A DNA stretch of 64,000 bases from Parabacteroides goldsteinii (GTDB lineage: Bacteria; Bacteroidota; Bacteroidia; Bacteroidales; Tannerellaceae), in assembly GCF_015550595.1 (NCBI RefSeq), contig NZ_JADNBB010000007.1, forward strand, positions 1 to 64,000, given 5' to 3'. A program made the position numbers and the translations under genes. Under the pieces are notes generated by a model. It did not search any database and had not been told where the DNA came from. It saw nothing but the letters and a program-made list of their open reading frames with translations. Of the stretch, positions 46,078-61,338 are shown piece by piece; position 1 is the stretch's first letter, and every line of letters begins with the position of its first letter.

Positions 46078-46460
46078 TGAAACGGCAGGAGAATAAGCAA
46101 CGGTTTTATCTCTGGGATTACCTCTGGTGGATGGGGGAGAAATGGAAGCAGGCAAGACGAACAGGCAGGGTCGATGGCGAAATGATGCTCTCGATTTATA
46201 TCTTCGCTCTTTTGATATTCCCTATGATGACTGTTACTATCCGGCTTTTTCCAGGTGTGTCGGCATTGTTGCCATGTGTCGTTTTTAGCATTGTCACATT
46301 TGCCGTTATGTCGCTCGTCAGCAGGATTTACAAATGGCGAGGCAAAGCAGTGATGTCTCACTATGCCAAGTGCAGGTTTAACGAACTCCTTGCGGTTCTG
46401 TTATTTTTCCTTGCGATGGCCATTATCTGCTTTATGATGTATCTTCTTGACAAAAAGTGA
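46074..46460 (+). CDS. Small membrane protein (128 aa), paralogue of the previous gene
   Basis: It starts MMKRQENKQRFYLWDYLWWM, overlapping the previous stop (ATGATGA). It has three membrane segments and the same layout and N-terminal motif as its upstream neighbour. Sits at the left border of the immunity array, convergent with it. Function unknown. Confidence 0.6.
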   Translation: MMKRQENKQRFYLWDYLWWMGEKWKQARRTGRVDGEMMLSIYIFALLIFPMMTVTIRLFPGVSALLPCVVFSIVTFAVMSLVSRIYKWRGKAVMSHYAKCRFNELLAVLLFFLAMAIICFMMYLLDKK

Positions 46461-46488
46461 TACATACTTTGATACGAACTCCGGGCCG

Positions 46489-47079: not shown

Positions 47080-47089
47080 TTTCTAATGT

Positions 47090-47142
47090 TTAATGTTCTG
47101 TGGCTAACCAATCTTGTTTAGGGAGTTGAGCCATTTGTTAAT
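47090..47142 (-). repeat. Cassette site 1 (attC-like)
   Basis: Stem TGGCTAAC / GTTGAGCCA. It is the leftmost site. The gene to its right reads through it and stops inside it. Its right end (TTAATAGC) matches site 2's left end only weakly. Confidence 0.7.
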
Positions 47143-48054
47143 AGCATCCAATCTGTTATTCTGTTTAATGGTATCTTCATTTCTACATAATTTGATTTGC
47201 CGAATAACGGAGTTCTGCATAATTGAATCGGATTTGAAAAGCAGTTCTAAAACGGCTTCATAACATTTGGAATATCTGGACAATTCATCCAATATATTTG
47301 CGTCTTTTAGAATATACAGGTTGAAATTGTACACAAATGACTTGTAACTGAAAATCTCCGACTGTAATGCTGCTGCATCAAGACAAGTATAAAACAATTC
47401 CTTATCGTGCTGATATAGCCACATATAATCAGATGGGTTCAGGTTGTAGTGCAATAAAGTTTCCGAACGGACAAATGGAAGCCCTGTATTTGAGCCTACC
47501 AGATAACGGTATGTCTCATTGACTATTGACTCAACTATTTCAATGGATTCTGATTGTTTGTCCGATTCCCGTATTTCTGTAAATGTATCGGCAATAAGAA
47601 CTTCCACATCCTGCGATTTGTAATATATACCGTTTTTTTGCCAGCGGAATCTACGGATATATTCTTCAGAAGTCGGACAACAGAACAGTAAAGTATTTAA
47701 CAATCGGCTCAGATATATTCGCTTATCTGGAATATGACAACGGTGTAACCCTATTATGGAGCCATAAGCGTATAGCTTTCCAAACTCGTTTTCCTCCGAA
47801 TTTGAATTTTTAGGCATGTAATACAACCGCACAATATTGTCAATGAAATAATATATATCAAGATATTTCAATGTATCAGCCGATTCTCCATATTTGTTAA
47901 GTAAATGCCGCTCCAGTTTCTCGCCATACCATAAGTAGTCATCGGGATTTATTTGAAACAACCGATGAAACTTAGGTTTTGATAATGAAAAGTTCTTGTT
48001 TCTACTTTTCATTCGTTCCAGTAAGGCGACAATAATTCTATTCGTTATATCCAT
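47104..48054 (-). CDS. Array cassette protein (316 aa), unknown
   Basis: A large soluble helical protein (LLERMKSRNKNFSLSKPKFH, LYQHDKELFYTCLDAAALQ), not recognised. The last ten or so codons (KWLNSLNKIG) are encoded by cassette site 1, where the stop codon lies, so its tail is recombination-site sequence. By position it is a probable toxin-immunity gene. AT-rich. Confidence 0.6.
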   Translation of the reverse strand: MDITNRIIVALLERMKSRNKNFSLSKPKFHRLFQINPDDYLWYGEKLERHLLNKYGESADTLKYLDIYYFIDNIVRLYYMPKNSNSEENEFGKLYAYGSIIGLHRCHIPDKRIYLSRLLNTLLFCCPTSEEYIRRFRWQKNGIYYKSQDVEVLIADTFTEIRESDKQSESIEIVESIVNETYRYLVGSNTGLPFVRSETLLHYNLNPSDYMWLYQHDKELFYTCLDAAALQSEIFSYKSFVYNFNLYILKDANILDELSRYSKCYEAVLELLFKSDSIMQNSVIRQIKLCRNEDTIKQNNRLDAINKWLNSLNKIG

Positions 48055-48059
48055 AGCTG

Positions 48060-48109
48060 TAATGTTCGGTGGATAATCAATCTTTCAGAGAGATTTATCT
48101 GCTTGTTAT
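48060..48109 (-). repeat. Cassette site 2 (attC-like)
   Basis: Stem GTGGATAATC / GATTTATCTGC with a bulge. Right end TTATAAAC is the reverse complement of site 3's left end (8 bases). Confidence 0.75.
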
Positions 48110-48113
48110 AAAC

Positions 48114-48608
48114 CTATTTGAAATTTGTCAGTATATCATTCTTTTTATTGGAAGACAACATTTCTAATAAATGATTAAAGCTATCGCAAACAAATTCTGC
48201 CGAATCTTCAAATTCAGGTTCAACTCCATAATAGATTTTACCGTAATTTTCCGGAGATAAATCTATGCACAAATATTGGTATCCATCTTTTACTGACATA
48301 AGAATAGGAATATGGCTATCCCAAAACAGGCGTATCATATCACAGGATTCCTTATCATCTGCCAACGCCTCAAGTCCCATCAGCTCAAATTCATTCCAAC
48401 GGAATCCGCTATCGCTTTCTCCGTTAAAGTCCTCTATGGAATTAAACCAAACATTATCACTTTCATTCGTGATTGTCTGAAACCGTTGTAAAAACTCCTG
48501 ATAGTCCGCAGGAAGTTCGGAGTACCGATTTTGTAAATCAGAGCTTAAATCTTTTCTTTCCAATCGTTCTGTAACGATGAATCCTATATTTTTCAGTGCT
48601 TCAATCAT
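48114..48608 (-). CDS. SMI1/KNR4 (SUKH) family immunity protein
   Basis: A 164-residue SUKH-fold protein: YSELPADYQEFLQRFQTIT is the SMI1/KNR4 signature, with the usual core ESDSGFRWNEFELMGLEAL and SPENYGKIYYGV. SUKH proteins neutralise many nuclease and other toxins of polymorphic toxin systems by direct binding. The target is unknown. Confidence 0.75.
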   Translation of the reverse strand: MIEALKNIGFIVTERLERKDLSSDLQNRYSELPADYQEFLQRFQTITNESDNVWFNSIEDFNGESDSGFRWNEFELMGLEALADDKESCDMIRLFWDSHIPILMSVKDGYQYLCIDLSPENYGKIYYGVEPEFEDSAEFVCDSFNHLLEMLSSNKKNDILTNFK

Positions 48609-48627
48609 ATTTTTATTTTACGAGTTT

Positions 48628-48681
48628 ATAATGGTTGGTGGCTAACCGACCTTTTCTGGGGAGGTTTAGCCGCATGTTAAT
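48628..48681 (-). repeat. Cassette site 3 (attC-like)
   Basis: Stem GGCTAACC / GGTTTAGCC. Right end TTAATCG pairs with site 4's left end (7 bases). Confidence 0.75.
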
Positions 48682-48686
48682 CGTCT

Positions 48687-49151
48687 TTATTGGATTAAAT
48701 GTATTATTAAAGATACTTCGTCTTTTTGGTAATGATAAGTTTTTATTATACAAGATGTTTTTTGTAGTGATAAAAACACTTTAACCGATGCTTCACAATA
48801 GGGAGACAAAGAATCAAATAGGACTAATTCAGTAGAATCCCATTTTACTTCAACTTCTTCTATCGGTTCTGCCCCAGTTACTATATCATTCTCCAGAAGT
48901 TTTTCCACCGTTAGATAATCGGGAGCATACTTCCAACGAATTATTAAAATTGCTCCATCTTTATTTACTATGCGTGTAGCCATCGGTTCATCTCCCATTA
49001 CCAATAAGACATGATTGTCTATATAGATTTTCCCCAAGTAATCTGTTACGCTACATATAGCATTGTAGTTTTCTTGACCCTTCCATTGATGGGCATATTG
49101 TTGCTCAACAATGACAAATGGGCTTCCTGATGTTTCAATCCAATTATTCAT
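48687..49151 (-). CDS. Array cassette protein (154 aa), unknown
   Basis: A small beta-rich protein (PFVIVEQQYAHQWKGQENYN, EVEVKWDSTELVLFDSLSPYC). No family recognised. It is presumed to be an immunity protein from its context between two cassette sites. Confidence 0.55.
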   Translation of the reverse strand: MNNWIETSGSPFVIVEQQYAHQWKGQENYNAICSVTDYLGKIYIDNHVLLVMGDEPMATRIVNKDGAILIIRWKYAPDYLTVEKLLENDIVTGAEPIEEVEVKWDSTELVLFDSLSPYCEASVKVFLSLQKTSCIIKTYHYQKDEVSLIIHLIQ

Positions 49152-49166
49152 ATTTTTTCTCAGCGA

Positions 49167-49214
49167 TTAATGTTCGGCGGATAAACCACCTTAAAAGTTT
49201 CATCTGTTTGTTAT
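49167..49214 (-). repeat. Cassette site 4 (attC-like)
   Basis: Stem GGCGGATAAAC / GTTTCATCTGT. Right end TTATCGACCT is the reverse complement of site 5's left end (10 bases). Confidence 0.75.
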
Positions 49215-49218
49215 CGAC

Positions 49219-49893
49219 CTATTTTATTTTTAGTTTTTGACTATATGCAAGTATTACGAAACGATTATCTAATCCACAATCAATTACATCATTCTTTTCT
49301 AATTGAGAATAGGCTTTTACAAATCTATTTCGACATTTACTTGAATGTATGTAATGATTGAAGTAGTTCTCGGCTTGTTCCTTTTCACCATATCTCAACA
49401 TATATGGCAGGGCAAGGAGAGAGTCTTTCGTGTATTGATTGAAACAACAGCCATGTTGCGTAATGAAGTCAATAGCCATTTGTCTATTCTCAAATAAATC
49501 AAATATCGGACAAGCATATTTTTCAAGTAAATCAATTATTGTTTTTATTGATGGAGCATAGCTTAGTCCGGCAAGATCCCAAGATTGATATTGATTTATT
49601 GGCGATAGGTATCCAATATGATTATGATATACTAAGCCATCATCATTGACATTAAGATTTTCTTCTTGCACCCACTTTTTCAAGTTTTTACAAGTAATCG
49701 TAATCAGTGGATATATAGCCACACTACAAGATGAATTATATACACTTGAACGAAACCATATTTCAAAAGTCAAATCTTTGTCTTTTGAAATCTTTTTTAG
49801 GCATTGTCCATTTTTAGACGGCTTAAATCCCATTGCAATAAAAGGAATAGCTATCTCATTGCAGGCTTTAATAAATATATCTCTTGGTTTCAT
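49219..49893 (-). CDS. DUF4304-like array cassette protein (224 aa)
   Basis: GFKPSKNGQCLKKISKDKDL and LTFEIWFRSSVYNSSCSVAI resemble DUF4304-type proteins that occur as immunity genes, and parallel KKGDFKKKMKNGLTYQIWFN in the recombinase-proximal protein. The C-terminal half is helical. The toxin is unknown. Confidence 0.55.
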   Translation of the reverse strand: MKPRDIFIKACNEIAIPFIAMGFKPSKNGQCLKKISKDKDLTFEIWFRSSVYNSSCSVAIYPLITITCKNLKKWVQEENLNVNDDGLVYHNHIGYLSPINQYQSWDLAGLSYAPSIKTIIDLLEKYACPIFDLFENRQMAIDFITQHGCCFNQYTKDSLLALPYMLRYGEKEQAENYFNHYIHSSKCRNRFVKAYSQLEKNDVIDCGLDNRFVILAYSQKLKIK

Positions 49894-49913
49894 TTCTTGT
49901 TCTTTTCAGGTCG

Positions 49914-49963
49914 ATAATGTTCGGCGGATAATCGACTGTTAGGGAGATTAATCCGCTTGTTAT
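49914..49963 (-). repeat. Cassette site 5 (attC-like)
   Basis: Stem GCGGATAATC / GATTAATCCGC with a one-base bulge, loop GACTGTTAGGGA. Right end TTATGCGCTT pairs with site 6's left end (10 bases). Confidence 0.8.
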
Positions 49964-49968
49964 GCGCT

Positions 49969-50637
49969 TTATTTAATAATACAATTATTTACTTTTATAA
50001 AATGACTTCCTTCAATATCTTTTAGTGCGGTAGGACTTATTTTCACCTTAGTTCTATGCACATTTTCACCTATTGTAATCGTCAGATTTCTACATAATTG
50101 CTTTATCCTTTCTACTACCACTTGGTACACGTCATTATAATTTTCCAATTCGTTACATAGTATTTCTCTATTTTCCTCTATTGAATATATTTTCTTAGGG
50201 TACTCTAATTGAACCCCCATTATATTCTCTGGAAAATTTATGTAACTGAATTTGGTTTGTAACTTATGTTCTTCATCAAGATAGAAGGCAAATAGATTGA
50301 ACCCGACGCAAGGCTCTATGAAATCCTCTGTTTTATACCATAATCCATCATTTGAATCTTGAAAGGGGACTTTATACGCACACTTACTTAGATTGTTTGA
50401 AAAGCCCGTGAGCAAATTGTCGATTACAATATGCTCGATTTTTTCACCGGACGTTAGTAAACGGTAAAAAGATTCGTAATCCCTTACAAAATTTGCAAAG
50501 TTACTTTCTATATAATCCGCAGGTACTCTACGGTTGTATATCACAATGTGAAATCCTCGCAAAATGTCTTTCAATTCTTGCGGTGTAACCAAGAACTTGT
50601 AAGTATGCCATCCTTTTGGATAATATTTCATGCTCAT
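49969..50637 (-). CDS. Array cassette protein (222 aa), unknown
   Basis: A soluble protein (HTYKFLVTPQELKDILRGFH, NFANFVRDYESFYRLLTSGE) without a named family. The N-terminal part is reminiscent of small immunity proteins. Flanked by sites 5 and 6, whose outer bases form a 10-base inverted repeat around this gene. Confidence 0.55.
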   Translation of the reverse strand: MSMKYYPKGWHTYKFLVTPQELKDILRGFHIVIYNRRVPADYIESNFANFVRDYESFYRLLTSGEKIEHIVIDNLLTGFSNNLSKCAYKVPFQDSNDGLWYKTEDFIEPCVGFNLFAFYLDEEHKLQTKFSYINFPENIMGVQLEYPKKIYSIEENREILCNELENYNDVYQVVVERIKQLCRNLTITIGENVHRTKVKISPTALKDIEGSHFIKVNNCIIK

Positions 50638-50658
50638 ATTGTATTAGTTTCTAAGCGC

Positions 50659-50708
50659 ATAATGTTCGGCGGATAATCATCATTAAAGGAGATTGATCCG
50701 CTTGTTAT
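50659..50708 (-). repeat. Cassette site 6 (attC-like)
   Basis: Stem GCGGATAATC / GATTGATCCGC. Right end TTATCTGCCC pairs with site 7's left end (10 bases). Confidence 0.8.
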
Positions 50709-50717
50709 CTGCCCGCT

Positions 50718-51713
50718 TTATTCCTCTTCTTCGATGAAATGATTTATAAAGTAATTGAATGACTGGGCGATGTAACGAGTATTTGTTTCAAAGTTGTATT
50801 CTCTTGAAGCGTTTTCGTCCCACTCGTCAGTCAAGTAATAGTAAATCTTTTTATTCTTCAAGTTCAACGCATAATAGTTTCCACCCGAATCCATAGCAAA
50901 AGGCAACAGATTGCATGGCATTAAATTCCTACTCCATATATCTTTGGCTATGACTTCAATTGTTTCAAAAGCATTGGTGCGTTCCTTTATCGGAAAGAAC
51001 GCATTTATCTCCACCCGATCCAAATCCTCGTCCTGCGGTTGATAACAATATGGTGATGGCATACCACCGTTGAACTTGAGGTAAAAGTTCTTCATGCCTG
51101 CCGGAATCTTTACATTCAACTCAACCTCAAAATTCTTTATATCTTCTTTTGTTAGCGAAGCCGAACAGTCCGAAAGTTCAGGCATTACACCTGCTGTCTC
51201 CGTTTGTCCCTCTTCGATTTCTTCTATTGCTGGAATTGCTTTGTGCCCGTCCAAAACAACGAGATTGTCAAAGAAATCATCTATTGAATTTGCAACAAGT
51301 CGTGGCTCTCCAAAATTGAAGATTACATCTTGCATCCCCACAATAGGGTAAAGATAGATCTTTCCATTAACCAAGTCTATGGTAATCCGACCTTCATCGG
51401 TAGATTCCATAGCAAAAATAAGAATGCTATCAGATATAGCTCCTGCTTTTCTTAACTCTAATGTTTCGCCTTCTGCCGTATATCTGGGGTCATTCTTAAA
51501 ATCCTTGTTATATTTGAATGGGAAGAAATCTTCAATTTCCACCTCTTGATATTTATTTATGCTTGCGATCTGTTTCGTAGAACCTCCATTATATTGTAAA
51601 TAGAACTCTTTCAGTCTTTCCGGCAAGGCATAACCCAATTTACTCTCTATTTCTTCAAAATCTTTGAGAGTAAGACTTTTTTGGCAATTTTCTAATTCTA
51701 TTTTCATATTCAT
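50718..51713 (-). CDS. Tandem SUKH (SMI1/KNR4) immunity protein
   Basis: 331 residues with two SUKH units. The first (about 10-150) starts LTLKDFEEIESKLGYALPER and continues EFYLQYNGG. The second (about 185-330) starts LTKEDIKNFEVELNVKIPAG and continues NFYLKFNGG. Joined immunity domains may protect against two toxins or bind one at two sites. An acidic linker (about 155-182) separates them. Confidence 0.8.
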   Translation of the reverse strand: MNMKIELENCQKSLTLKDFEEIESKLGYALPERLKEFYLQYNGGSTKQIASINKYQEVEIEDFFPFKYNKDFKNDPRYTAEGETLELRKAGAISDSILIFAMESTDEGRITIDLVNGKIYLYPIVGMQDVIFNFGEPRLVANSIDDFFDNLVVLDGHKAIPAIEEIEEGQTETAGVMPELSDCSASLTKEDIKNFEVELNVKIPAGMKNFYLKFNGGMPSPYCYQPQDEDLDRVEINAFFPIKERTNAFETIEVIAKDIWSRNLMPCNLLPFAMDSGGNYYALNLKNKKIYYYLTDEWDENASREYNFETNTRYIAQSFNYFINHFIEEEE

Positions 51714-51728
51714 TCTTTTTATGGGCAG

Positions 51729-51780
51729 ATAATGTTTGGCAGCTAACCGACCTTTAAGGGGAGGTTGAGCCGCTTGTTAT
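51729..51780 (-). repeat. Cassette site 7 (attC-like)
   Basis: Stem AGCTAACC / GGTTGAGCC. Right end TTATTCTT pairs with site 8's left end (8 bases). The neighbouring gene's TAA stop lies in the site. Confidence 0.75.
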
Positions 51781-52241
51781 TCTTTCAATTTGGATATGGA
51801 GTGTAATATTACAGCTCTTCTATTGGTTATACCGGTTTCTTCACATATACAAGCAATTCCATCAGACAATATTATGGCAAAGCCAAAATTCGACTGTATT
51901 CCTGCATTTATAGCCTCTGATATATCTGCCCATTTTTGATCCAGCTCAAAAAAACCGATGCAATATCCTTCTTTCTCTTTAGATAATTCACGAAGTCTAT
52001 CTGTCAAATGGATTAAATCCGTAGAATTATAGACCTCGACAATCTTATTCTCATTTATAATATCCATCATATTATGACAAATTCGACTAATAGCTTTTAC
52101 TCTTTTTTTGTTTGATGACAGTTCAAAAAAGAAACGGTCTTGATAACCAGACTTAATGAATTGCTTACAAAAAAAATCTTCTATGGTATTTCCTTTATTC
52201 ATATCCAATTCTTTTGAAGAATAATGGGTTGTAAATAGCAA
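51777..52241 (-). CDS. Array cassette protein (154 aa), unknown
   Basis: A soluble helical/beta protein (IIDNENKIVEVYNSTDLIHL-like region; YCIGFFELDQKWADISEAIN). Family unknown. Its TAA stop is part of the ATAAC end of site 7. An ATG at 52203 (MNKGNTIEDFF) is an alternative start nearer to the usual site-to-gene spacing. Confidence 0.5.
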   Translation of the reverse strand: MLFTTHYSSKELDMNKGNTIEDFFCKQFIKSGYQDRFFFELSSNKKRVKAISRICHNMMDIINENKIVEVYNSTDLIHLTDRLRELSKEKEGYCIGFFELDQKWADISEAINAGIQSNFGFAIILSDGIACICEETGITNRRAVILHSISKLKE

Positions 52242-52269
52242 CTGTTAGGGTTGCTTATTTACTTGTTAT
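52221..52269 (-). repeat. Cassette site 8 (attC-like), variant stem
   Basis: Unrelated sequence but a better hairpin: GTAAATAGCAAC / GTTGCTTATTTAC with one bulge, loop TGTTAGG. Right end TTATCCGCA pairs with site 9's left end (9 bases). Confidence 0.8.
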
Positions 52270-52276
52270 CCGCACA

Positions 52277-53026
52277 TTAATTCTCTTCATCATTGCCATA
52301 GGCTAATTCTATATCAATAAACTGAATTACCAACTGACATATTTCGCCGCCTTCGTCTATGCCCCAATAAACCGGATACGTACCATCTCCGAACCCTGAT
52401 TGAAAAATGGGAATATGATACTCCGTCCCCGGCACTTGCCAATTTAACCAGTCTCCGCCTGCACGTTGATATTCTGGATGGAGATAATAGTTTTCTTTGA
52501 ATAATGCAGCAAAATATCCATCATAAGGATTATCATCGGGATTATCTTTGCGCCATTGTTCATCCCAGTCGCAATAAATACGGTGGATAATTTCATCACA
52601 TACACATCCTAAACCAGCATCTACACAAAATCCAAAGTAATCACCCTCTTCCAATGTTTCAAGGTTTTCATTCCCAACTAATGCTTCATAGAATCGAACA
52701 GCCCGCTTTTCATTGAAGCGCAAACGTACTGCGGCATAACGGTCGCAATCCTCGTCGTCAGATTTGATTACACAAATTTCCGTTTCATATTTACCCGCAG
52801 GAGCGTTCTGAAAATATGGACGTTCGTTTCTGTTTGGGAGATATACCAATGGATCTCGTACCAAAAGATTTCCACTCGGCAAATCGCAAGAACCGATATT
52901 AATCGTCGTTAACGATTTTCCTGCAATTTCTTCTTGCTCAAAATAAGTATTGAGGTCAACAGGGCAGACGGTTTTTTCTTTTACCGATTCCCATTTTTTC
53001 ATCCAGTTGTTTTCTAATTCTTTCAT
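52277..53026 (-). CDS. DUF4241-family array cassette protein
   Basis: A 249-residue DUF4241 protein: LPSGNLLVRDPLVYLPN, APAGKYETEICVIKSDDED, RYAAVRLRFNEKRAVRFYEA and FGFCVDAGLGCVCDE are the conserved blocks. The family is frequent beside polymorphic toxins and is thought to act as immunity. Confidence 0.75.
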   Translation of the reverse strand: MKELENNWMKKWESVKEKTVCPVDLNTYFEQEEIAGKSLTTINIGSCDLPSGNLLVRDPLVYLPNRNERPYFQNAPAGKYETEICVIKSDDEDCDRYAAVRLRFNEKRAVRFYEALVGNENLETLEEGDYFGFCVDAGLGCVCDEIIHRIYCDWDEQWRKDNPDDNPYDGYFAALFKENYYLHPEYQRAGGDWLNWQVPGTEYHIPIFQSGFGDGTYPVYWGIDEGGEICQLVIQFIDIELAYGNDEEN

Positions 53027-53051
53027 ATTCCTTTTTGATTTTTAGTTGCGG

Positions 53052-53104
53052 ATAATGTTTGGTGGCTAACCGACCTTTTTAGGGGAGGCTAAGCCGCTTG
53101 TTAT
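53052..53104 (-). repeat. Cassette site 9 (attC-like)
   Basis: Stem GGCTAACC / GGCTAAGCC. Right end TTATATGCCAT is the reverse complement of site 10's left end (11 bases), the longest informative match. Confidence 0.8.
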
Positions 53105-53636
53105 ATGCCATTTCCAAATTATTAAAGATATTAAAACCTATATATGATTCTTTGTTGGGGTATCTCGACCTATAATAGCAATTCCAATAACTAATCATTT
53201 GATTTTTAGTTCGATCAAAGAATTTTTCATTTTCTCCGATAAAACGAAGGTATCTATCCATATTACACTCCAAATGCTTCTTCACATCGTATAAAATATT
53301 ATCTACATATTCTCCTAATAGCTTAAAGCAAAATGGTATAGTCCAATATTCTGTGCAGGAGATTAGGTTTTGTAGATGGTGTTGCCTTACAAAACCATTA
53401 TTATGTCTTGTGAAAATACAGTCAAGAATATTTCTTTGTATTGCTGTCATATTGGACGGTGTCTGTTCTCTCATATATACCCGTTCTGGAATTGCTATAT
53501 TCAAACCTCCAAGATTGACGATATAGTATCGGCTGCTTATATCATCATTTTTCATCACAAGCATATCCAATACTCTCCGTACATCTTTTGCGAGATCCGG
53601 AGGAAATGAATTTAATATTTTATCCTTTTCATACAT
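53079..53636 (-). CDS. Array cassette protein (185 aa), unknown
   Basis: A soluble helical protein (FPPDLAKDVRRVLDMLVMKN, YWTIPFCFKLLGEYVDNILY), not recognised. The ATG at 53636 is preferred; the open frame runs up to a TTG inside site 10. The C-terminal residues (about the last nine) are encoded by site 9. Confidence 0.5.
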   Translation of the reverse strand: MYEKDKILNSFPPDLAKDVRRVLDMLVMKNDDISSRYYIVNLGGLNIAIPERVYMREQTPSNMTAIQRNILDCIFTRHNNGFVRQHHLQNLISCTEYWTIPFCFKLLGEYVDNILYDVKKHLECNMDRYLRFIGENEKFFDRTKNQMISYWNCYYRSRYPNKESYIGFNIFNNLEMAYNKRLSLP

Positions 53637-53641
53637 GGCAT

Positions 53642-53693
53642 ATAATGTTTGGTGGATAATCAACCTTTTAAGGGAGATTTATCCACTTGTTAT
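53642..53693 (-). repeat. Cassette site 10 (attC-like)
   Basis: Stem GTGGATAATC / GATTTATCCAC: both arms differ from site 5 but still pair (compensatory change). Right end TTATGGTAG pairs with site 11's left end (9 bases). Confidence 0.8.
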
Positions 53694-53699
53694 GGTAGT

Positions 53700-54071
53700 T
53701 TATTCATATTGTTCACACTCTCGCTCTATGTCAGCAATTATCTCTTGAACAGTACGAATTATACCTTTCCCCTTTGACAATGGGAATACAGCCAACATCA
53801 CATTGTCTTTTTCTAACTTCGGTAATAACTTCTCAATGAAGTCATCAAGAGGAATAGAATTGGGTTGATAGTTATCCCATTTACACAATTCTGCAAATTC
53901 CTTTTCGCTCCATACAGGAAATAAAACTTGCTCATTATTTCCCATTAAAGCCCAACCTTCTTTATCCTTTAACCCCCAAACTTCTTCAAAGTCTGAAACT
54001 TTACGAATAAAGTAGCCATATCTTTCTGCTGCTGAAAGATTTACTATATTTTTAATCCTGCTATTGTTCAT
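53700..54071 (-). CDS. DUF2750-family array cassette protein
   Basis: A 123-residue DUF2750 protein: AAERYGYFIRKVSDFEEVWG, WALMGNNEQVLFPVWSEKEF and PLDDFIEKLLPKLEKDN. A family with no defined mechanism; here probably an immunity protein. Confidence 0.75.
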   Translation of the reverse strand: MNNSRIKNIVNLSAAERYGYFIRKVSDFEEVWGLKDKEGWALMGNNEQVLFPVWSEKEFAELCKWDNYQPNSIPLDDFIEKLLPKLEKDNVMLAVFPLSKGKGIIRTVQEIIADIERECEQYE

Positions 54072-54080
54072 TTTTCTACC

Positions 54081-54129
54081 ATAATGGTTTGGAAAGAAAC
54101 ACCGTTTAGGGGTTATCTTTCCTTGTTAT
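54081..54129 (-). repeat. Cassette site 11 (attC-like), variant stem
   Basis: GGAAAGA / TCTTTCC stem extended by ACACC / GGGGT around GTTTA. Right end TTATGAAC pairs with site 12's left end (8 bases). Confidence 0.75.
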
Positions 54130-54772
54130 GAACTTCTTCCCAATACTGCTCTATGCTAAAAATGTGAGTATCATTATTACACCGCTCTAAATTCTCGTTG
54201 CTATCGTTATCAACTTTTCGGAAAGCAAATAGATAAGCATAATTTTTATTGCAGCTCTCTCTATCTGTTTCCGAGTAGGGACGCTTTCGTTTTAACCCGT
54301 AAATGTCAAAGCGATAATTACCTTTGGATATTTGTATTTCATCAGAATGATAAAACGAATGTGGATTATCATTTATATCAAATACTTCTCCCATAAACAC
54401 ACATTGACTTTTAGCTATCAAATCACGGTGTTCTTCAAAAAACTCAAAGGAAGAAAAGCAAAGTTTATCATCTGTTCCGATTGTAATAAACCAATCTTTA
54501 TAAAGATAAACTTGTTCCCAATCCTTTGGAATATTCACATCTTTTTCTGTTGTGATATAGATTGAATATTGATACGTTGGTATTTGATAGATAGGCAATG
54601 CTATCCCTTTGGCAATCATTTCCAAAAACATATCCTTATGCTTATCAAGATACGACAGCATTTTCTTTGCCCGGCATTTCTTCTCTTGCATCCATTCATT
54701 GAATGTACCGGGCGAATATATGAATAGCCCATAACCGAAAGCATAAATGCTATTTAGTTCTTTTATACTCAT
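54113..54772 (-). CDS. Array cassette protein (219 aa), unknown
   Basis: MSIKELNSIYAFGYGLFIYS and QEKKCRAKKMLSYLDKHKDM are its visible start; a beta region (PIYQIPTYQYSIYITTEKDV) follows. No family named. Its stop lies inside site 11, so the final residues (HNKER) derive from the site. Confidence 0.5.
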   Translation of the reverse strand: MSIKELNSIYAFGYGLFIYSPGTFNEWMQEKKCRAKKMLSYLDKHKDMFLEMIAKGIALPIYQIPTYQYSIYITTEKDVNIPKDWEQVYLYKDWFITIGTDDKLCFSSFEFFEEHRDLIAKSQCVFMGEVFDINDNPHSFYHSDEIQISKGNYRFDIYGLKRKRPYSETDRESCNKNYAYLFAFRKVDNDSNENLERCNNDTHIFSIEQYWEEVHNKER

Positions 54773-54793
54773 ATTTTTGCGCTTTAATTGTTC

Positions 54794-54846
54794 ATAATGC
54801 TTGGCGGATAACCGACCTTTTCAGAGGAGGCTCATCCGCTTGTTAT
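54794..54846 (-). repeat. Cassette site 12 (attC-like)
   Basis: Stem GCGGAT / ATCCGC with further AACC / GGCT pairing. Right end TTATCAAT pairs with site 13's left end (8 bases). Confidence 0.75.
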
Positions 54847-54854
54847 CAATGGTT

Positions 54855-55397
54855 TTACTTTGTGCAATCAATTAACTTTTTTATTTCTTCGACACGTTTT
54901 GCATCGGTAAACGATTTAGATTTAAAATAATTATCTGTAAATTCCTGATTTTTAATTCGTAATATTCGTTCTCTTAACAACGGAACTAAAACTATGGAAT
55001 CGAGATTTTGAAATCGTTCCTTATATTTTATCAATATCTCTTCCAAACGATTAAAAACAGCATCGCAAAGTTGACATCTCATTTCATTTTCTGACAACTC
55101 TATATACTCATCCAAAGCCAACATTTGATCTATGTTAAGTATATCTTTTTTTTGAATATATCGAGCATACGATTTTAAGCTATTTTTTTTAATATCTTCT
55201 CTGCGAAATAATCTTAAAACAATAGCTAATGATATATGGTGTTTATCTATTCTTTGCACCTGATTAGATATTTCCTCTTGCCAAATCATATCCCCCAAGT
55301 TGGTAGCTATATAGTTTACAACTTTGTCTTGTTTCACATTGGCTTCAAAACTTCCAGCCCACCTTAAATCATATGTTATTGATAAAAAAACTCCCAT
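54855..55397 (-). CDS. Array cassette protein (180 aa), unknown
   Basis: A helical protein (MGVFLSITYDLRWAGSFEAN, NIDQMLALDEYIELSENEMR). Not recognised. Very AT-rich. Presumed immunity gene by context. Confidence 0.5.
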   Translation of the reverse strand: MGVFLSITYDLRWAGSFEANVKQDKVVNYIATNLGDMIWQEEISNQVQRIDKHHISLAIVLRLFRREDIKKNSLKSYARYIQKKDILNIDQMLALDEYIELSENEMRCQLCDAVFNRLEEILIKYKERFQNLDSIVLVPLLRERILRIKNQEFTDNYFKSKSFTDAKRVEEIKKLIDCTK

Positions 55398-55445
55398 ATT
55401 ATTTATTCCGTTAAAAACAAACTACATTTTTAGACATCTTTATTG

Positions 55446-55494
55446 ATAATGGCTTGACGGGGAACGGCGTTAGTCCGTTATCCCGGCTTGTTAA
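55446..55494 (-). repeat. Cassette site 13 (attC-like), variant stem
   Basis: GGGGAACGG / CCGTTATCCC around CGTTAGT. Right end TTAATATTAAA pairs with site 14's left end (11 bases, but AT-only, so less telling). Confidence 0.75.
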
Positions 55495-55502
55495 TATTAA
55501 AT

Positions 55503-56108
55503 TTATGTTTCCTGATAGATTGTTTCAGAATATAATTCAGTCGAAAGAATAATAAATTTTAATTCTCCATTAGGCTTATAATCAAATGAATGTTGTAACG
55601 TATCCTGTTCAATATCATTTCTATCAAATTGTCTTATAACTATTTTTTGTAGGCGGTCATTTTCATAAAAATATGTTTCTTCTCTACTTCCACGAGTGCC
55701 CTTTGAATACATCTTCTCTATTTTACCATTACTTCCATATAGATAATATCGGACATTCACAATACGTTTGCTATTATCATATGCAATAGTTTTCATAAGT
55801 TCCTTTTCGTAAATGAAAAAGGTATAATAGAATTGATTTTTAAGTTCCAACCCCTCTCGGATTTCTATAATTTGATTTTTTGCATCGAAATAATAAGTAA
55901 ATAGGTTATTAGTTGTTTTAAGAGAAGTTACATTTCCAACTATTTTCCCTTGCTTAAACCTATTTCTTTGATAAGAATAAGGAGCTATTTCGTAGAACTC
56001 ACCTTTGTAATTCTCTTCCTTTACAACATTCTTATCAATTTCTCTTTTCAATTCATCAAACATATTTCTCAATGAATTAAAATCATTTTTCAATTTATCA
56101 GGTATCAT
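55503..56108 (-). CDS. Array cassette protein, paralogue family member 1
   Basis: A 201-residue protein closely related to the one at 56893-57513: both have YKGEFYE(I/L)(A/T)PYSYQR, a KNQFYYTF/ENQFYHTF block and RGSREETY/HGSREENY. The repeated short beta strands recall YD-repeat chains. Family name not known to me. Probably an immunity protein of a diversified set. Confidence 0.6.
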   Translation of the reverse strand: MIPDKLKNDFNSLRNMFDELKREIDKNVVKEENYKGEFYEIAPYSYQRNRFKQGKIVGNVTSLKTTNNLFTYYFDAKNQIIEIREGLELKNQFYYTFFIYEKELMKTIAYDNSKRIVNVRYYLYGSNGKIEKMYSKGTRGSREETYFYENDRLQKIVIRQFDRNDIEQDTLQHSFDYKPNGELKFIILSTELYSETIYQET

Positions 56109-56125
56109 AGTGTTTCCTTTTAATA

Positions 56126-56174
56126 TTAATGTTTGGCAGCGTTCCGCTTGTTCAGTCGGTTTGCTGCTTGTTAG
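56126..56174 (-). repeat. Cassette site 14 (attC-like), variant stem
   Basis: GCAGC / GCTGC with inner CCG / CGG. Right end TTAGTAACCT matches site 15's left end in 9 of 10 bases. Confidence 0.7.
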
Positions 56175-56178
56175 TAAC

Positions 56179-56823
56179 CTATTTTTTAGATTTCCACCAA
56201 ACTACATTTCCTATTTTTATCTTATTGAGTTTATTATCAACGTATTCTAAATCATATTCCGTTTGATTATTCCAACCTGAAGCATATCTGAAAATTTTAT
56301 CGACTTTATTTTCGTTGCCTACATGATAGGCAGTTGTACTCCAATTATGTTTATTATCTGATACGCATACATGTGCTTGTAATAAATCATTGATTTGAAA
56401 AAGAATACCTATTGATACTAATTTGCTATTATACTTTTTAGACGGATAAGATCGTAGAATGAAATACTCTATACATCCGCTATTGTGATAATCGTAAACT
56501 TGTGAAATAATGCCAAAATCTTTTCCTAATGAATGTTGTGTCAATAAAAGTTTTTCTTCTTTAGAAAAGCCGAAGGAGAAAATATAAGGAGAAGCAAATC
56601 TTTCGTCAAATTGAATATTTTTCAAGATGCGTCCTTTCTTCATCTTATTTAGTTCCTTTTCAAATGGAATTAGAGTATAAAATTCATCCGTTGCATATTT
56701 CCAATTTGAAACGGAGCGTTCTTGTATCGTTATTCGTTTCTCTAAAAAAGATATATCCTGTTTTAACTTATCAAACAGCATATCTTTTATTTCTACTATT
56801 TTATCATTTCTTATTATATCCAT
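56179..56823 (-). CDS. Array cassette protein, paralogue family member 2 (divergent)
   Basis: A 214-residue protein with the same plan as its two neighbours (FYTLIPFEKELNKMKKGRIL beside FYEIAPYSYQRNRFKQGKIV, and repeated beta strands), but much diverged. It ends DNKLNKIKIGNVVWWKSK. Immunity by context. Confidence 0.55.
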   Translation of the reverse strand: MDIIRNDKIVEIKDMLFDKLKQDISFLEKRITIQERSVSNWKYATDEFYTLIPFEKELNKMKKGRILKNIQFDERFASPYIFSFGFSKEEKLLLTQHSLGKDFGIISQVYDYHNSGCIEYFILRSYPSKKYNSKLVSIGILFQINDLLQAHVCVSDNKHNWSTTAYHVGNENKVDKIFRYASGWNNQTEYDLEYVDNKLNKIKIGNVVWWKSKK

Positions 56824-56845
56824 ATTTTGATATTCACAAGGTTGC

Positions 56846-56896
56846 TAATGTCCGGCGGATAATCGACCTTTTAGGAGAGATTAATCCGCTTGTTAG
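56846..56896 (-). repeat. Cassette site 15 (attC-like)
   Basis: Stem GCGGATAATC / GATTAATCCGC, loop GACCTTTTAGGAGA. Right end TTAGCAAC shares AGCAAC with the remnant site 16. Confidence 0.75.
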
Positions 56897-57513
56897 CAAC
56901 TTCTTTTCGTTTTATAGATTATTTCAGAATATCCATTTGGAAATGATTTGGTAATAGTTTCTAAAGTCCCATCGTCTTGATATTGGAATATGTGAACTAA
57001 ATCACTACCACTTTTACCATCAATATCATATTGTTTGATTTCAATATGTGTCAAAGCGTTTTCTTTATAGATATAATTCTCTTCACGGCTACCATGACTA
57101 CCACATAACTGTAACCGTTTCAACTTTCCGCCCTCGAAAAAGTTATGGCATACATTCATCAAATGTTTACCATTATCATATAGAATACTTTTCACAAGAT
57201 TGTCTGTATAATATAGGAAAGTGTGATAAAACTGATTTTCAATCGAACAACCAACCTTAACTTCGACTATTTGATTTTGATTATTAAACCCGTAGATACA
57301 AAGATTTTTGGTGTTTTTTACTGTATCAGGACGCTTTACAGGTTTTCCTTGTCTGAAACCATGACGCTGATAGGAATATGGGGTAAGCTCATAAAACTCG
57401 CCCTTATACAACTCAGTCCTGACAACATCGCTTTCTATTTGTTGTCTTATGATTTCAAAGTCATTTTTCAATGCTTCAAATTCAGTTCTTAAAGTCTCTT
57501 CAATCATTTCCAT
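56893..57513 (-). CDS. Array cassette protein, paralogue family member 3
   Basis: A 206-residue homologue of the 55503-56108 protein (YKGEFYELTPYSYQRHGFRQ, SREENYIYKENALTHIEIKQ). It starts METI-like as MEMIEETLRTEFEALKNDFE. Its stop overlaps the right end of site 15. Confidence 0.6.
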   Translation of the reverse strand: MEMIEETLRTEFEALKNDFEIIRQQIESDVVRTELYKGEFYELTPYSYQRHGFRQGKPVKRPDTVKNTKNLCIYGFNNQNQIVEVKVGCSIENQFYHTFLYYTDNLVKSILYDNGKHLMNVCHNFFEGGKLKRLQLCGSHGSREENYIYKENALTHIEIKQYDIDGKSGSDLVHIFQYQDDGTLETITKSFPNGYSEIIYKTKRSC

Positions 57514-57523
57514 TTATTTTGGG

Positions 57524-57537
57524 TTGCTGTTTGTTAT
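57524..57537 (-). repeat. Cassette site 16, remnant
   Basis: Only GTTGCT joined to GTTTGTTAT is left: the two outer boxes without the hairpin. The end bases still match sites 15 (AGCAAC) and 17 (TTATCAG), so the stem was lost after cassette assembly. Confidence 0.6.
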
Positions 57538-57556
57538 CAGAACAAAATAAATGATT

Positions 57557-57904
57557 TTATAAAAGCATAAATTCACTTGCTTCCACGTCAATAGCCCTGC
57601 AATTCCAATGCGAGCATAGTTGTTTCACGAAGCGCAAGATTGTTTCTTCATTTTCACCTCCATGAAAACATAAGTGTATATTTTCGATACTTTCGTTATC
57701 GTCCCAAGAAATCTCCACGCCACACTCGTTGTCTAATTGCAGTATCATTTCGCTATCCGACAAATTATCATCGGAAATAAGAAAAGTGTTCTGCATCCAA
57801 TCCACGAACGCATTTCTATCTGTTATAGGCAGTATTTCATCCACTTCCGACAAATCTGATTCATCGTTCAATGGCGTTTTTATTAAAATGATAGACCAAC
57901 TCAT
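57557..57904 (-). CDS. Small acidic array cassette protein (115 aa)
   Basis: It starts MSWSIILIKTPLNDESDLSE and is strongly acidic in its first half. ILRFVKQLCSHWNCRAIDVE forms the end. The size and charge are typical of immunity proteins. No family named. Confidence 0.55.
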   Translation of the reverse strand: MSWSIILIKTPLNDESDLSEVDEILPITDRNAFVDWMQNTFLISDDNLSDSEMILQLDNECGVEISWDDNESIENIHLCFHGGENEETILRFVKQLCSHWNCRAIDVEASEFMLL

Positions 57905-57957
57905 ATTTTTTTTATTTAATTAGTTCATGTTCTGTTTTTTATTCTTTTTATGCACTG

Positions 57958-58006
57958 ATAATGGGTTGCAGCTTGCCGCCGTTAAGGCGGAACAGGTGCT
58001 TGTTAT
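57958..58006 (-). repeat. Cassette site 17 (attC-like), second subtype
   Basis: CCGCC-GTTAA-GGCGG stem with outer GCAGC / GGTGC. Right end TTATACACAT pairs with site 18's left end (10 bases). Confidence 0.8.
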
Positions 58007-58014
58007 ACACATTT

Positions 58015-58647
58015 TTATACATAGTAATAATACCAATTACTATTAAAATTGGTATCAAAATTTTCTTTACTATCCAACTTTACATGGAAATTTTCTTTTG
58101 TGAAAAATCCAAATTCATCATAGCGATTCAACAAACCTAAATACATTTCCGACCATATATCTATAAATCCTCTTTCTTTATATTGTCTTACTTGCTTATC
58201 CTCATACAAGAAAAAAACAACATTAGCCAAACAGCGAGAAATATCCCATAAATCATTACAATGTAATTTTTCTTTTAATTCCAATATTTCAAGTTGAGTA
58301 ATGCTATTATTAGCTTCCTCTTTTGCTAATGTTTCAAATGCTTGATAGGATAGATAAATGCTATCGGCTTTATTTTCTATATTCGCAATTTGTTTGAATT
58401 TATTCAATATCGTATTTCTTTTTCGAGAATCGACAACAAACCGTCCTTTATAAAAATAATTTACTTCATTTTCATATTTGAACCAAAGAGTAAGATTAAT
58501 AGAATCTTCCCCTTTTGCACATATCACATTGATTACTTGTACAGAAAATCGTTCCTGTATAAAATCGGCAAGTTGAGCATATTCTTTATTCATGCTTTCT
58601 TGTCCGAGTAGAACTCTTTTGGTTTGTTGAAAATCGTTATCTGTCAT
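58015..58647 (-). CDS. Array cassette protein (210 aa), unknown
   Basis: A soluble protein (FIQERFSVQVINVICAKGED, KADSIYLSYQAFETLAKEEA), family not recognised. Very AT-rich. Presumed immunity gene between sites 17 and 18. Confidence 0.5.
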   Translation of the reverse strand: MTDNDFQQTKRVLLGQESMNKEYAQLADFIQERFSVQVINVICAKGEDSINLTLWFKYENEVNYFYKGRFVVDSRKRNTILNKFKQIANIENKADSIYLSYQAFETLAKEEANNSITQLEILELKEKLHCNDLWDISRCLANVVFFLYEDKQVRQYKERGFIDIWSEMYLGLLNRYDEFGFFTKENFHVKLDSKENFDTNFNSNWYYYYV

Positions 58648-58659
58648 TTCTTTATGTGT

Positions 58660-58707
58660 ATAATGGGATGCAGCTTGCTGCCGTTAGGCGGCACAGGTGC
58701 TTGTTAT
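58660..58707 (-). repeat. Cassette site 18 (attC-like), second subtype
   Basis: GCTGCC-GTTA-GGCGGC stem, same subtype as site 17. Right end TTATCAAC pairs with site 19's left end (8 bases). Confidence 0.8.
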
Positions 58708-59183
58708 CAACCTTTCAAAAATTCAGAATAGCGTTTATTACAAATTTCTTTTATCTCATTATAGTTTTCTTCTGAATTTTCCACATAAAAATATGAAGTG
58801 TCGGGATTATATTGACTGCCTAACTTATTCTTTACCCAATTATCATAGTCAGCTAAATAGTAACCAAACTTCTTTGCAAATTTGGTTTTGTCTGAATGAT
58901 AATAGGCTGCTGCAAACTGCTTACCTTTAGTATTAAATTCATTTGATGTAAGAACTCCGTCCATATCATCAAAGAAAAAATCTCTACAATCCAACTCTTT
59001 ATTTTTAATTTGTTGGAGCTCTTCTGCACAATCTTCTTCGATTTCTCGTGACATTAAATCATTTTCAACACACCACCTTACGAAGAAAGCAATGTGTGTT
59101 GCACCTGCTATTGCAGGTAAATCTTTAGGCATATCTTTTGAGTCATAATGCCATTTGGCTTTGTCATAAACTTCAAACTTCAT
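58707..59183 (-). CDS. Immunity-type array cassette protein (158 aa)
   Basis: The start KFEVYDKAKWHYDSKDMPKD followed by AGATHIAFFVRWCVENDLMS is a pattern I associate with a family (DUF7832-like) often found next to polymorphic toxins. The C-terminal half ends NEIKEICNKRYSEFLKG. The target is unknown. Confidence 0.6.
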   Translation of the reverse strand: MKFEVYDKAKWHYDSKDMPKDLPAIAGATHIAFFVRWCVENDLMSREIEEDCAEELQQIKNKELDCRDFFFDDMDGVLTSNEFNTKGKQFAAAYYHSDKTKFAKKFGYYLADYDNWVKNKLGSQYNPDTSYFYVENSEENYNEIKEICNKRYSEFLKG

Positions 59184-59206
59184 ATTTTGTTTTTTTAAGT
59201 TAGTTG

Positions 59207-59240
59207 ATAATGTTATACTATCAGCCGATTTGGCTGTTAT
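59207..59240 (-). repeat. Cassette site 19 (attC-like), short
   Basis: Shorter hairpin CAGCC / GGCTG. Its left end pairs with site 18. Its right end (TTATTTTCTT) has no partner before the recombinase gene. Confidence 0.65.
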
Positions 59241-59252
59241 TTTCTTTAAGTA

Positions 59253-60140
59253 TCATTTATCTATTTCTTTAGGTCTGTTAGCAAACAACTTCAACCGGAA
59301 GTCCTGTTCTTTTTGAGCTAACTCTTTCGGTTGTCCCCAGGGGTTGACGATGAGATACCAAGCTCGAAAAGTGCGCTTCTTCGGATCTGTTTCCTGCTGG
59401 TAGAGCTGATAGCTCGCCTCGTCCTCCTGCGTCCACTGTCCTGTCTGCCGCTTGGCTTGCACAAAGGGTTCCACCACCTGGTTCAGTTCCTCTCTGGTGC
59501 GGCTTGAGGCCCAAGCGTGATCCACATCATCGGCATGGGACTGGTAGAACAACAGCAAACCCGTCCGGTTCTTTGCCTTGCACTCCGGCGTTCCGCACAA
59601 TTCAACCTGACGTCGGTACTCATCCAACTGTTCCGCTGTTCCGTACCGTTCTACCATCTGCTCCCGCACATAGATGCGCCAGCTGTAATCCTCTGGCTGG
59701 GTAAAGGGGGTGCAGACCGACTGGAGCGCCTCTGTCGGGTCTGCTTCAAAGCAGTCGATAAAATCGAGGTAGTGGGCTTTGATCAGGGGCAGGAAGGTGT
59801 CCAGCAACCCGGTGTCCAGCCGCAGGTCCTCTGTCAGCATCCGAAAGAATGAACCGCCTATTGTCGGTTCTATTTTGAAAGAGTAGAGGTAATCATCTCC
59901 CTGCTTTATGATACAGGTGAAGCCCACCTCCACATTTCCATGACCGATTTCGTAGTCTATGTAGTTGTAGTGGCTCCGGTTAAACCAGATCTGATAGGTC
60001 AGCCCGTTTTTCATTTTCTTTTTGAAGTCGCCCTTTTTCAGACGCTTCCAGCCCTTTTCCTCCAGGCCCAGACCGTTCCACAAGTAGTCCAAAGCATCCT
60101 CAAAGATGTTTGCTGGACGTTTTTGTTCTTTTGAAGTCAT
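59253..60140 (-). CDS. DUF4304-like protein next to the recombinase
   Basis: A 295-residue protein: GWKRLKKGDFKKKMKNGLTY and EVGFTCIIKQGDDYLYSFKI are DUF4304-like. The C-terminal part is a charged helix (TREELNQVVEPFVQAKRQTG). It is visibly GC-richer than the other array genes, which suggests a different donor. It sits between site 19 and the recombinase and would be the newest cassette if insertion occurs beside the recombinase. Confidence 0.6.
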   Translation of the reverse strand: MTSKEQKRPANIFEDALDYLWNGLGLEEKGWKRLKKGDFKKKMKNGLTYQIWFNRSHYNYIDYEIGHGNVEVGFTCIIKQGDDYLYSFKIEPTIGGSFFRMLTEDLRLDTGLLDTFLPLIKAHYLDFIDCFEADPTEALQSVCTPFTQPEDYSWRIYVREQMVERYGTAEQLDEYRRQVELCGTPECKAKNRTGLLLFYQSHADDVDHAWASSRTREELNQVVEPFVQAKRQTGQWTQEDEASYQLYQQETDPKKRTFRAWYLIVNPWGQPKELAQKEQDFRLKLFANRPKEIDK

Positions 60141-60191
60141 AATATTAAACTTTCAAATCATACAATAAAAACAACTAAACTCACATTGATT
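60141..60191 (-). other. Recombinase-proximal junction, candidate primary insertion site
   Basis: These 51 AT-rich bases separate the first cassette gene from the recombinase stop. No attC-like hairpin and no partner for site 19's right end is seen. By analogy with integrons an attI-like site should lie here or overlap the recombinase 3' end. Confidence 0.3.
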
Positions 60192-61304: not shown

Positions 61305-61338
61305 GCCTCACGTTTTGTCGGATATTGAAACCCGTTTT

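What the first reader, a model, noticed from the sequence alone, without database searches (positions are those of the whole stretch)
48060..59240. Cassette ends carry private matching bases, as in circular integron cassettes
The bases just outside the conserved core at the right of site n are the reverse complement of those left of site n+1, in almost every pair. Examples are TTATCGACCT (sites 4/5), TTATGCGCTT (5/6), TTATCTGCCC (6/7), TTATATGCCAT (9/10) and TTATACACAT (17/18). Each gene therefore has its own 7-11-base inverted end pair, differing from cassette to cassette. In integrons this is the sign that the R'' and R' boxes of one attC were together in a circular cassette and were split when it was inserted. 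About four of these bases (TTAT) belong to the shared core; the remaining 3-7 are private.
Basis: seen in the sequence. Interest (0 to 1): 0.97.

Follow-up and report, generated by a model that had tools for sequence, protein, structure and literature searches.

The report
Gut integron without the integron integrase
In gut Bacteroidales, arrays of predicted toxin-immunity genes are strings of single-gene cassettes whose two ends carry cassette-specific matching bases; identical cassettes recur in other species with new neighbours and exact borders, so they likely move as circles the way integron cassettes do, but beside a recombinase that lacks the extra segment typical of integron integrases.

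Summary
In the window, 17 scorable neighbour pairs give a matched-prefix sum of 90, against 17.9 (sd 5.4) for shuffled pairs; 0 of 100,000 shuffles reach it. In 50 related loci, 178 non-redundant pairs give 907 against 101 (sd 14). Environmental Bacteroidota relatives carry a second, ~125-nt site family with the same rule (85 against 16.7). Used as a probe, the private bases of the first cassette are found within 140 bp after the recombinase stop in 43 of 60 loci, against 35 of 2,484 for other loci's bases, which locates an attI-like site. Near-identical cassettes occur with different neighbours; each keeps its downstream site, and homology stops at CATTA. Inner stems covary. Cassettes hold one gene with a ~21-nt leader. 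Best reading: an integron-like platform, probably recombining folded single strands, whose recombinase lacks IntI's extra segment. The arrays are known rAID clusters, whose biogenesis a 2025 preprint calls unresolved. Circles, strand choice and catalysis are inferred. New variant of a known kind.

The parts
60192..61304 (-). Tyrosine recombinase, 370 aa, without an I2-sized segment; extra N-terminal ~90 residues before the SAM-like domain
59208..59254 (-). attI-like site; same block lies after the recombinase in 16 other loci, followed by different first cassettes
58661..59207 (-). Cassette 18 (first): gene 58707-59183 (DUF7832), own site 58661-58706, private pair TCAAC
57959..58660 (-). Cassette 17: gene 58015-58647, own site 57959-58005, private pair TACACAT
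57521..57958 (-). Cassette 16: gene 57557-57904, site internally truncated (about 57521-57540), private pair TCAG
56846..57520 (-). Cassette 15: gene 56893-57513, own site 56846-56895
   Evidence: pairing by eye only
56127..56845 (-). Cassette 14: gene 56179-56823, own site 56127-56173; pair G-AACCT with one mismatch
55447..56126 (-). Cassette 13: gene 55503-56108, own site 55447-55493, private pair ATATTAAA
54795..55446 (-). Cassette 12: gene 54855-55397, own site 54795-54845, private pair TCAAT
54082..54794 (-). Cassette 11: gene 54113-54772, own site 54082-54128, private pair TGAAC
53643..54081 (-). Cassette 10: gene 53700-54071 (DUF2750), own site 53643-53692, private pair TGGTAG; same cassette in L024 and L040
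53053..53642 (-). Cassette 9: gene within 53079-53663 (the listed ORF starts upstream, in the next site), own site 53053-53103, private pair TATGCCAT; same cassette in L025 and L041
52222..53052 (-). Cassette 8: gene 52277-53026 (DUF4241), own site 52222-52268, private pair TCCGCA
51730..52221 (-). Cassette 7: gene within 51777-52241 (the listed ORF starts upstream, in the next site), own site 51730-51779, private pair TTCTT
50660..51729 (-). Cassette 6: gene 50718-51713 (two SUKH-like stretches), own site 50660-50707, private pair TCTGCCC; same cassette in L024, L025 and L040
49915..50659 (-). Cassette 5: gene 49969-50637, own site 49915-49962, private pair TGCGCTT; same cassette in L024
49168..49914 (-). 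Cassette 4: gene 49219-49893, own site 49168-49213, private pair TCGACCT; same cassette in L022, L025 and L041
48629..49167 (-). Cassette 3: gene 48687-49151 (Imm21), own site 48629-48679, private pair ATCG; first 260 bases identical to the attI-proximal cassette of L027
48060..48628 (-). Cassette 2: gene 48114-48608 (SUKH), own site 48060-48108, private pair TAAAC
47091..48059 (-). Cassette 1 (last): gene 47104-48054, own site 47091-47140; ends do NOT match

Best explanation
The array is a string of single-gene cassettes that each carry a site with a covarying stem at the 3' end, share private matching bases between their two ends and recur with exact borders in other genomes, and they likely move as excised circles that the neighbouring tyrosine recombinase is predicted to insert at an attI-like site beside its own gene, as in an integron. 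Shown by sequence: borders at CATTA, the downstream site travelling with its gene, an upstream attI-like block conserved up to TTA, the private end match, and inner-stem covariation with an extra base on the R''-L'' arm in most sites. Inferred: in the circle the two private ends meet and close a stem of about 8-9 pairs (R''/R'), one strand folds, and the recombinase exchanges strands at (A/G)^TTA. Because private bases differ between cassettes and what is kept is their complementarity, pairing within one strand is what selection most likely sees. On insertion a site keeps its own R'' side but receives the next cassette's R' side, so the outer stem is broken; free circles would then be better substrates than inserted cassettes, a built-in bias towards capture. 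The cargo is predicted immunity genes (rAID).
For: End pairs: gut; environmental. Blind placing of attI: 43 of 60 loci against 35 of 2,484 controls (positions; the 140-bp limit was set). Mobility: in 86 homologous cassette pairs with both neighbours different, the own site is the more alike in 78, the upstream site in 8; in 43 pairs of 97% identity or more, identity is 1.00 through CATTA downstream and falls to 0.51, 0.35, 0.33 at the next three bases. One cassette has AACGTTA before it at attI in L027 and AACATTA before it in the window, so the -3 base belongs to the left partner (one case). Hairpin: 12 of 13 inner pairs change on both sides; extra base on the R''-L'' arm the unique best in 130 of 232 distinct sites. 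Circle form more stable than array form in 183 of 208, bottom strand more than top in 177 of 208. Cassette make-up. Order shuffled between arrays.
Against: No recombination, circle or single-stranded DNA was seen. The recombinase lacks I2, which is held to confer single-strand recombination on IntI (PMC7790495, passages). Single array-form sites fold weakly: six window folds with z from -1.75 to +0.45. Compensatory changes in private ends are few: 6 paired two-sided against 34 one-sided and 2 unpaired two-sided. In the drawn stem two inner pairs (18-32, 19-31) are unpaired in 12 and 11 of 17 sites. S1/S2 does not match. 17 of 60 loci fail the attI probe, seven of them matching an intermediate site instead. 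The extra base is not the unique best in 102 of 232 sites (47 ties, 26 none, 23 on the other arm, 6 of two bases). Only one candidate for a clean gain or loss was found.
Confidence: 0.83

Rival explanations
1. Ordinary double-strand site-specific recombination: the recombinase swaps cassettes between duplex TTA cores as Xer enzymes do, and the inverted private ends are recombinase half-sites or by-products.
For: The recombinase scores best as XerA-like and has no I2-sized segment. Cassette borders alone fit duplex exchange too.
Against: Private ends have 90 different 5-mers (positions 2-6) in 178 pairs and match only their own partner; duplex exchange gives no reason for that. Inner stems covary.
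Confidence: 0.12
2. The repeats act in RNA (terminators or processing hairpins) and cassettes are shuffled by homologous recombination between them.
For: Sites lie between co-directional genes and form hairpins.
Against: The private partners are ~500-1,000 bases apart in the array. Breakpoints in 43 of 43 compared pairs sit at CATTA instead of being spread over the repeat; attI has a different sequence yet the same border.
Confidence: 0.03
3. A classical integron with an ordinary IntI.
For: Same layout and end pairing; TIGR02249 is the second-best NCBIfam hit; IntI4 is among the nearest structures.
Against: 203.8 bits against a cut-off of 265; the IntI4 alignment leaves 58 chain residues opposite 15 here. 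Gut sites end in ATTA rather than GTT. The recombinase is co-oriented with the cassettes.
Confidence: 0.02

Closest known systems
rAID (recombinase-associated acquired interbacterial defence) clusters of Bacteroidales
   Same: Tyrosine recombinase, co-oriented short predicted immunity genes, conserved intergenic motifs, as described in PMC12247911 (passages). This array is one.
   Different: The preprint calls the mechanism of biogenesis unresolved. Cassette borders, attI, private ends and environmental relatives are added here. Ross et al. 2019 could not be read and may already note a likeness to integrons.
Integrons (IntI, attI, attC)
   Same: Recombinase, attI-like site, single-gene cassettes with own 3' site, R''-L''-L'-R' layout, extra base on the R''-L'' arm, private pairing at cassette ends, exchange compatible with G^TT.
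   Different: No I2-sized segment; gut sites are short (43-52 nt) and end in CATTA; recombinase co-oriented with the array; extra N-terminal ~90 residues.
Xer recombinases (archaeal XerA, XerC/D)
   Same: Best NCBIfam (XerA_Arch, 211 bits, cut-off 220) and best PDB match by sequence and fold (5hxy).
   Different: They act on duplex dif-type sites (recalled) and are not known for cassette arrays (recalled).

Membership tests
Integron | Integron integrase with the extra I2 segment | tested here: not met
   TIGR02249 203.8 bits, cut-off 265; PRK15417 140.7, cut-off 435; 15 residues opposite 58 of IntI4; 40 relatives align in 385 columns
Integron | attI-type site beside the recombinase gene | tested here: met
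   By sequence only:
Integron | attC-like imperfect hairpin with an extrahelical base on the R''-L'' arm | tested here: met
   By covariation and counts; not unanimous (130 of 232 unique best)
Integron | Conserved AAC ... GTT at the site ends | tested here: not met
   Gut: 296 of 312 sites begin TAAC but 300 of 312 end CATTA. Environmental sites mostly end CGTTA or CGTTG
Integron | Cassette = one gene without its own promoter plus its 3' site | tested here: inconclusive
   One gene and 3' site met; lack of promoter judged only from the ~21-nt leader
Integron | Cassettes exchanged at a fixed base within the site | tested here: met
   By comparison of genomes:
Integron | Integrase-dependent recombination of a folded bottom strand, circular intermediates | not testable with these tools
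   Needs an assay
Integron | Cassette promoter Pc at the platform | not tested
   -
rAID | Tyrosine recombinase followed by co-directional short genes with shared intergenic motifs | tested here: met
   definition from PMC12247911
rAID | Array genes below 41% GC | not tested
   -

The most novel reading that the evidence does not exclude
Integron-type cassette capture exists in a second enzymatic form: a Bacteroidota recombinase family without I2 recombines folded single-stranded sites, from environmental bacteria to the human gut. Each cassette's private ends are its own lock: fully paired only in the free circle, broken on insertion, so capture is favoured over loss, and gut bacteria use it to stockpile toxin-immunity genes.
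Probability: 0.55. Interest if true: 0.95.

Novelty: new variant of a known kind. Interest (0 to 1): 0.87.

Why it matters
rAID immunity arrays are described as widespread in gut Bacteroidales, but how they acquire genes was called unresolved in 2025 (PMC12247911, passages). The borders, attI and the end-pair rule give a concrete, testable mechanism and allow cassettes to be delimited exactly. Integron theory ties the step from double- to single-strand recombination to the I2 helix (PMC7790495, abstract and passages); a cassette system with attC-like hairpins and no I2 would show another route, or a form from before I2. IntegronFinder's survey names one complete integron in Bacteroidetes proper, in Salinibacter (PMC9024848, passages); a search that rests on IntI would probably overlook these arrays.

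Tried and rejected
Chance or shared consensus as the source of end matches: rejected by shuffles. Pairing of the two flanks of one site: mean prefix 1.0. Cassette = upstream site + gene: rejected, the downstream site travels. Compensatory evolution of private ends: weak. Clean X-Y versus X-Z-Y gain or loss: one candidate, L062/L046. Model R1 in 296 genomes drawn across the phylum: hits in the own genome only, with strict filters; in 123 genomes of the family: hits in 7, the recombinase in 6 at E 1e-60, four genomes in both lists. Model R2: no hit in 13 gut sources. No Rfam family at gathering score in 46000-62000. TIGR02249 in 60 genomes of the class rang nowhere, not even in the 14 control genomes, so it shows nothing. 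Pfam on five environmental cassette genes: one PD40 hit, four none. A tree with IntI sequences was not made.

Literature: eight searches listed no paper that I recognised as joining rAID to integrons; I judged most of those papers by their listing alone. Ross et al. 2019 is not held. Of the papers cited I saw passages found by term, not whole texts; also looked at by term: PMC10470768, PMC8618304, PMC12632263, PMC8632748.
Full report
WHAT IS THERE. Window 47091-61304, minus strand, holds a tyrosine recombinase (60192-61304), a 295-aa gene (59253-60140), an attI-like site (59208-59254) and 18 single-gene units, each with a site at its 3' end. One site (57.53 kb) is internally truncated. Of the 18 cassette genes, six have Pfam hits: SUKH (two), Imm21, DUF4241, DUF2750, DUF7832. 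This is a rAID array as described in PMC12247911 (passages). A MobC coupling-protein gene lies at 43233-45242, so the array is probably on a conjugative element.

THE OBSERVATION. The private end match is confirmed and specific to true neighbours (90 against 17.9, sd 5.4; 0 of 100,000; unique best partner in 16 of 17). It drops to background at about the eighth base. One pair fails (S1/S2), one has a mismatch (S14/S15). The shared core is TTA; the fourth base is private too.

OTHER ARRAYS. A four-sequence recombinase alignment brought 80 loci from named genomes, besides four plasmid loci. A covariance model of the 17 intact window sites found 331 hits in 85 sources, 17 of them the window's own. 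All hits in the loci are on the strand of the recombinase; nearly all lie downstream of it (three in L059 lie upstream of the matched recombinase). I kept 312 non-window hits in 50 loci. In 178 non-redundant adjacent pairs less than 1,100 bp apart the match sum is 907 against 100.8 (sd 14.0). Ten environmental loci without these sites have another family, about 125 nt (NNNNNTAAC...CGTTANNNNN): 36 hits, ten of them the model's training set, all downstream of the recombinase and on its strand. There 26 adjacent pairs include 19 closer than 1,500 bp, which sum to 85 against 16.7 (sd 6.1; maximum 51; 0 of 20,000); four of the 19 have a prefix of 0 or 1.

A BLIND TEST. If the rule holds, the first cassette's 5' end must sit at attI. 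I took the bases before the first detected site of each locus, reversed them and looked for TTA or TTG followed by that 5-mer within 140 bp after the recombinase stop. It is there in 34 of 50 gut-type and 9 of 10 environmental loci; other loci's bases are found in 35 of 2,396 and 0 of 88 trials. The 140-bp limit was set after a first look, and applies to the controls alike. In the second gut-type clade (48-50% identity) 18 of 29 hits sit at +65 to +98; nine of ten environmental hits at +70 to +125. Seven of the 16 gut misses match an intermediate site that the model had missed. The sequence left of TTA differs between the clades and is similar within each gut clade.

MOBILITY AND BORDERS. 248 cassettes gave 119 homologous pairs (80% identity or more), 103 after removing pairs with the same four site sequences. 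In 86 both neighbours differ. The own (downstream) site is 91.8% alike on average, the upstream one 68.9%; 78 of 86 favour the own site, 8 the other. In the 43 pairs of 97% identity or more, downstream identity is 1.00 through CATTA and then 0.51, 0.35, 0.33; upstream it is 1.00 from the first private base into the cassette, 0.98-1.00 in CATTA and 0.60 just left of it. A cassette whose compared 260 bases are identical stands at attI in L027 (AACGTTA) and inside the window array (AACATTA), so the -3 base belongs to the left partner. With the downstream limit this puts the exchange within (A/G)^TTA, compatible with integron G^TT; the left limit rests on this one case. Cassette order is shuffled: 46 families of two or more, 132 single cassettes. 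Some families occur beside both recombinase clades (F45 in L091 and the window), which suggests that both use the same sites.

HAIRPIN. On the 17 window sites 12 of 13 inner pairs change on both sides; 83.8% of cells pair; the covariation score is 0.407 against 0.150 in shuffles; slid versions pair in at most 47.8%. I drew the structure from these sequences, which favours it over the slid controls; two of its inner pairs are mostly unpaired. An extra base on the R''-L'' arm, of any base type, is the unique best in 130 of 232 distinct sites (47 ties, 26 none, 23 other arm, 6 two bases). The longer sites also covary (13 of 27 predicted pairs, 10 sequences) and fold well singly (four folds of three sites, z -3.0 to -4.7). 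Folded as DNA, the circle form (own private ends together) is more stable than the array form in 183 of 208 cassettes, equal in 19 (bottom-strand means -12.1 and -7.8 kcal/mol), and the bottom strand more than the top in 177 of 208. One reason can be read directly: TAACA/CATTA gives C.A mismatches on the top strand but G.T wobbles on the bottom. Single array-form sites of the window fold weakly (six folds, z -1.75 to +0.45).

WHY PAIRING. A protein could hardly recognise 90 different private 5-mers by sequence; what is kept is that the two ends of one cassette complement each other. That is expected if they pair within a strand when joined. In integrons pairing likewise extends past the 7-nt R boxes to 9-11 nt (PMC2727003, passages). 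The few compensatory changes (6 against 34 one-sided) do not prove selection.

THE RECOMBINASE. Best models are XerA_Arch (211 bits, cut-off 220) and integron integrase (204, cut-off 265; two stretches, the best ending at residue 270). Against IntI4 the alignment leaves chain residues 184-241 opposite query 272-286. Forty relatives align in 385 columns, so none has an insertion of that size. The AlphaFold model (mean pLDDT 81, pTM 0.54) shows a short loop with one strand there and an N-terminal domain; Foldseek's first ranks are XerA and IntI4. As pTM is modest I use local features only.

AGAINST. No activity was seen. I2 is held to be necessary for cassette capture and to confer single-strand recombination (PMC7790495, passages), and the insertion to be essential for integron function (PMC8138268, passages); so either something else does that job here or the reaction differs.

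KNOWN OR NEW. rAID arrays are known; integrons are known. My eight searches listed no paper that I recognised as joining them, but Ross et al. 2019 could not be read and may note a likeness. What I add: cassette borders, attI in several clades, the private-end rule in two site families, environmental relatives, and the missing I2 segment. I rate it a new variant of a known kind: it works like an integron but fails defining tests (I2; GTT in the gut sites).

Noticed in passing
L072, L078, L082, L085, L086, L088, L090, L096, L098, L099: Environmental Bacteroidota (for example Maribellus, Draconibacterium, Mariniphaga by record title) carry ~125-nt attC-like sites beside relatives of this recombinase; five cassette genes scanned gave one PD40 hit, so the cargo may not be immunity genes.
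   Followed up: partly
window 59253-60140; L029: A 295-aa gene without Pfam or NCBIfam hit lies between recombinase and attI-like site in the window; in L029 the attI block also lies ~940 bp after the recombinase.
   Followed up: no
L022 11118-12720; L037 11117-12727: First unit ~1.5 kb; attI ends GTTC and the first site begins GAAC, as if the core base pair had changed on both sides (by eye).
   Followed up: no
L036, L037, L072: Recombinase reading frames with internal stops in the matched stretch (3 of 69 checked) although sites lie downstream; these arrays may depend on another recombinase.
   Followed up: no
L083 4639-8833: Repeated ~50-nt and longer units with TCTTGTCTTCGAGCC upstream of the recombinase, unlike either site family.
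   Followed up: no
L082, L088 and other environmental cassette ends: Beyond the private 5-6 bases the 5' ends often read AAGTT and the reversed 3' ends TGGTT, so there is shared sequence outside the private bases.
   Followed up: no
window 43233-45242: Bacteroides-type MobC coupling protein (1105.5 bits, cut-off 900). The window's genome is in the same genus as G041, whose contig length equals that of a Parabacteroides gordonii record.
   Followed up: no
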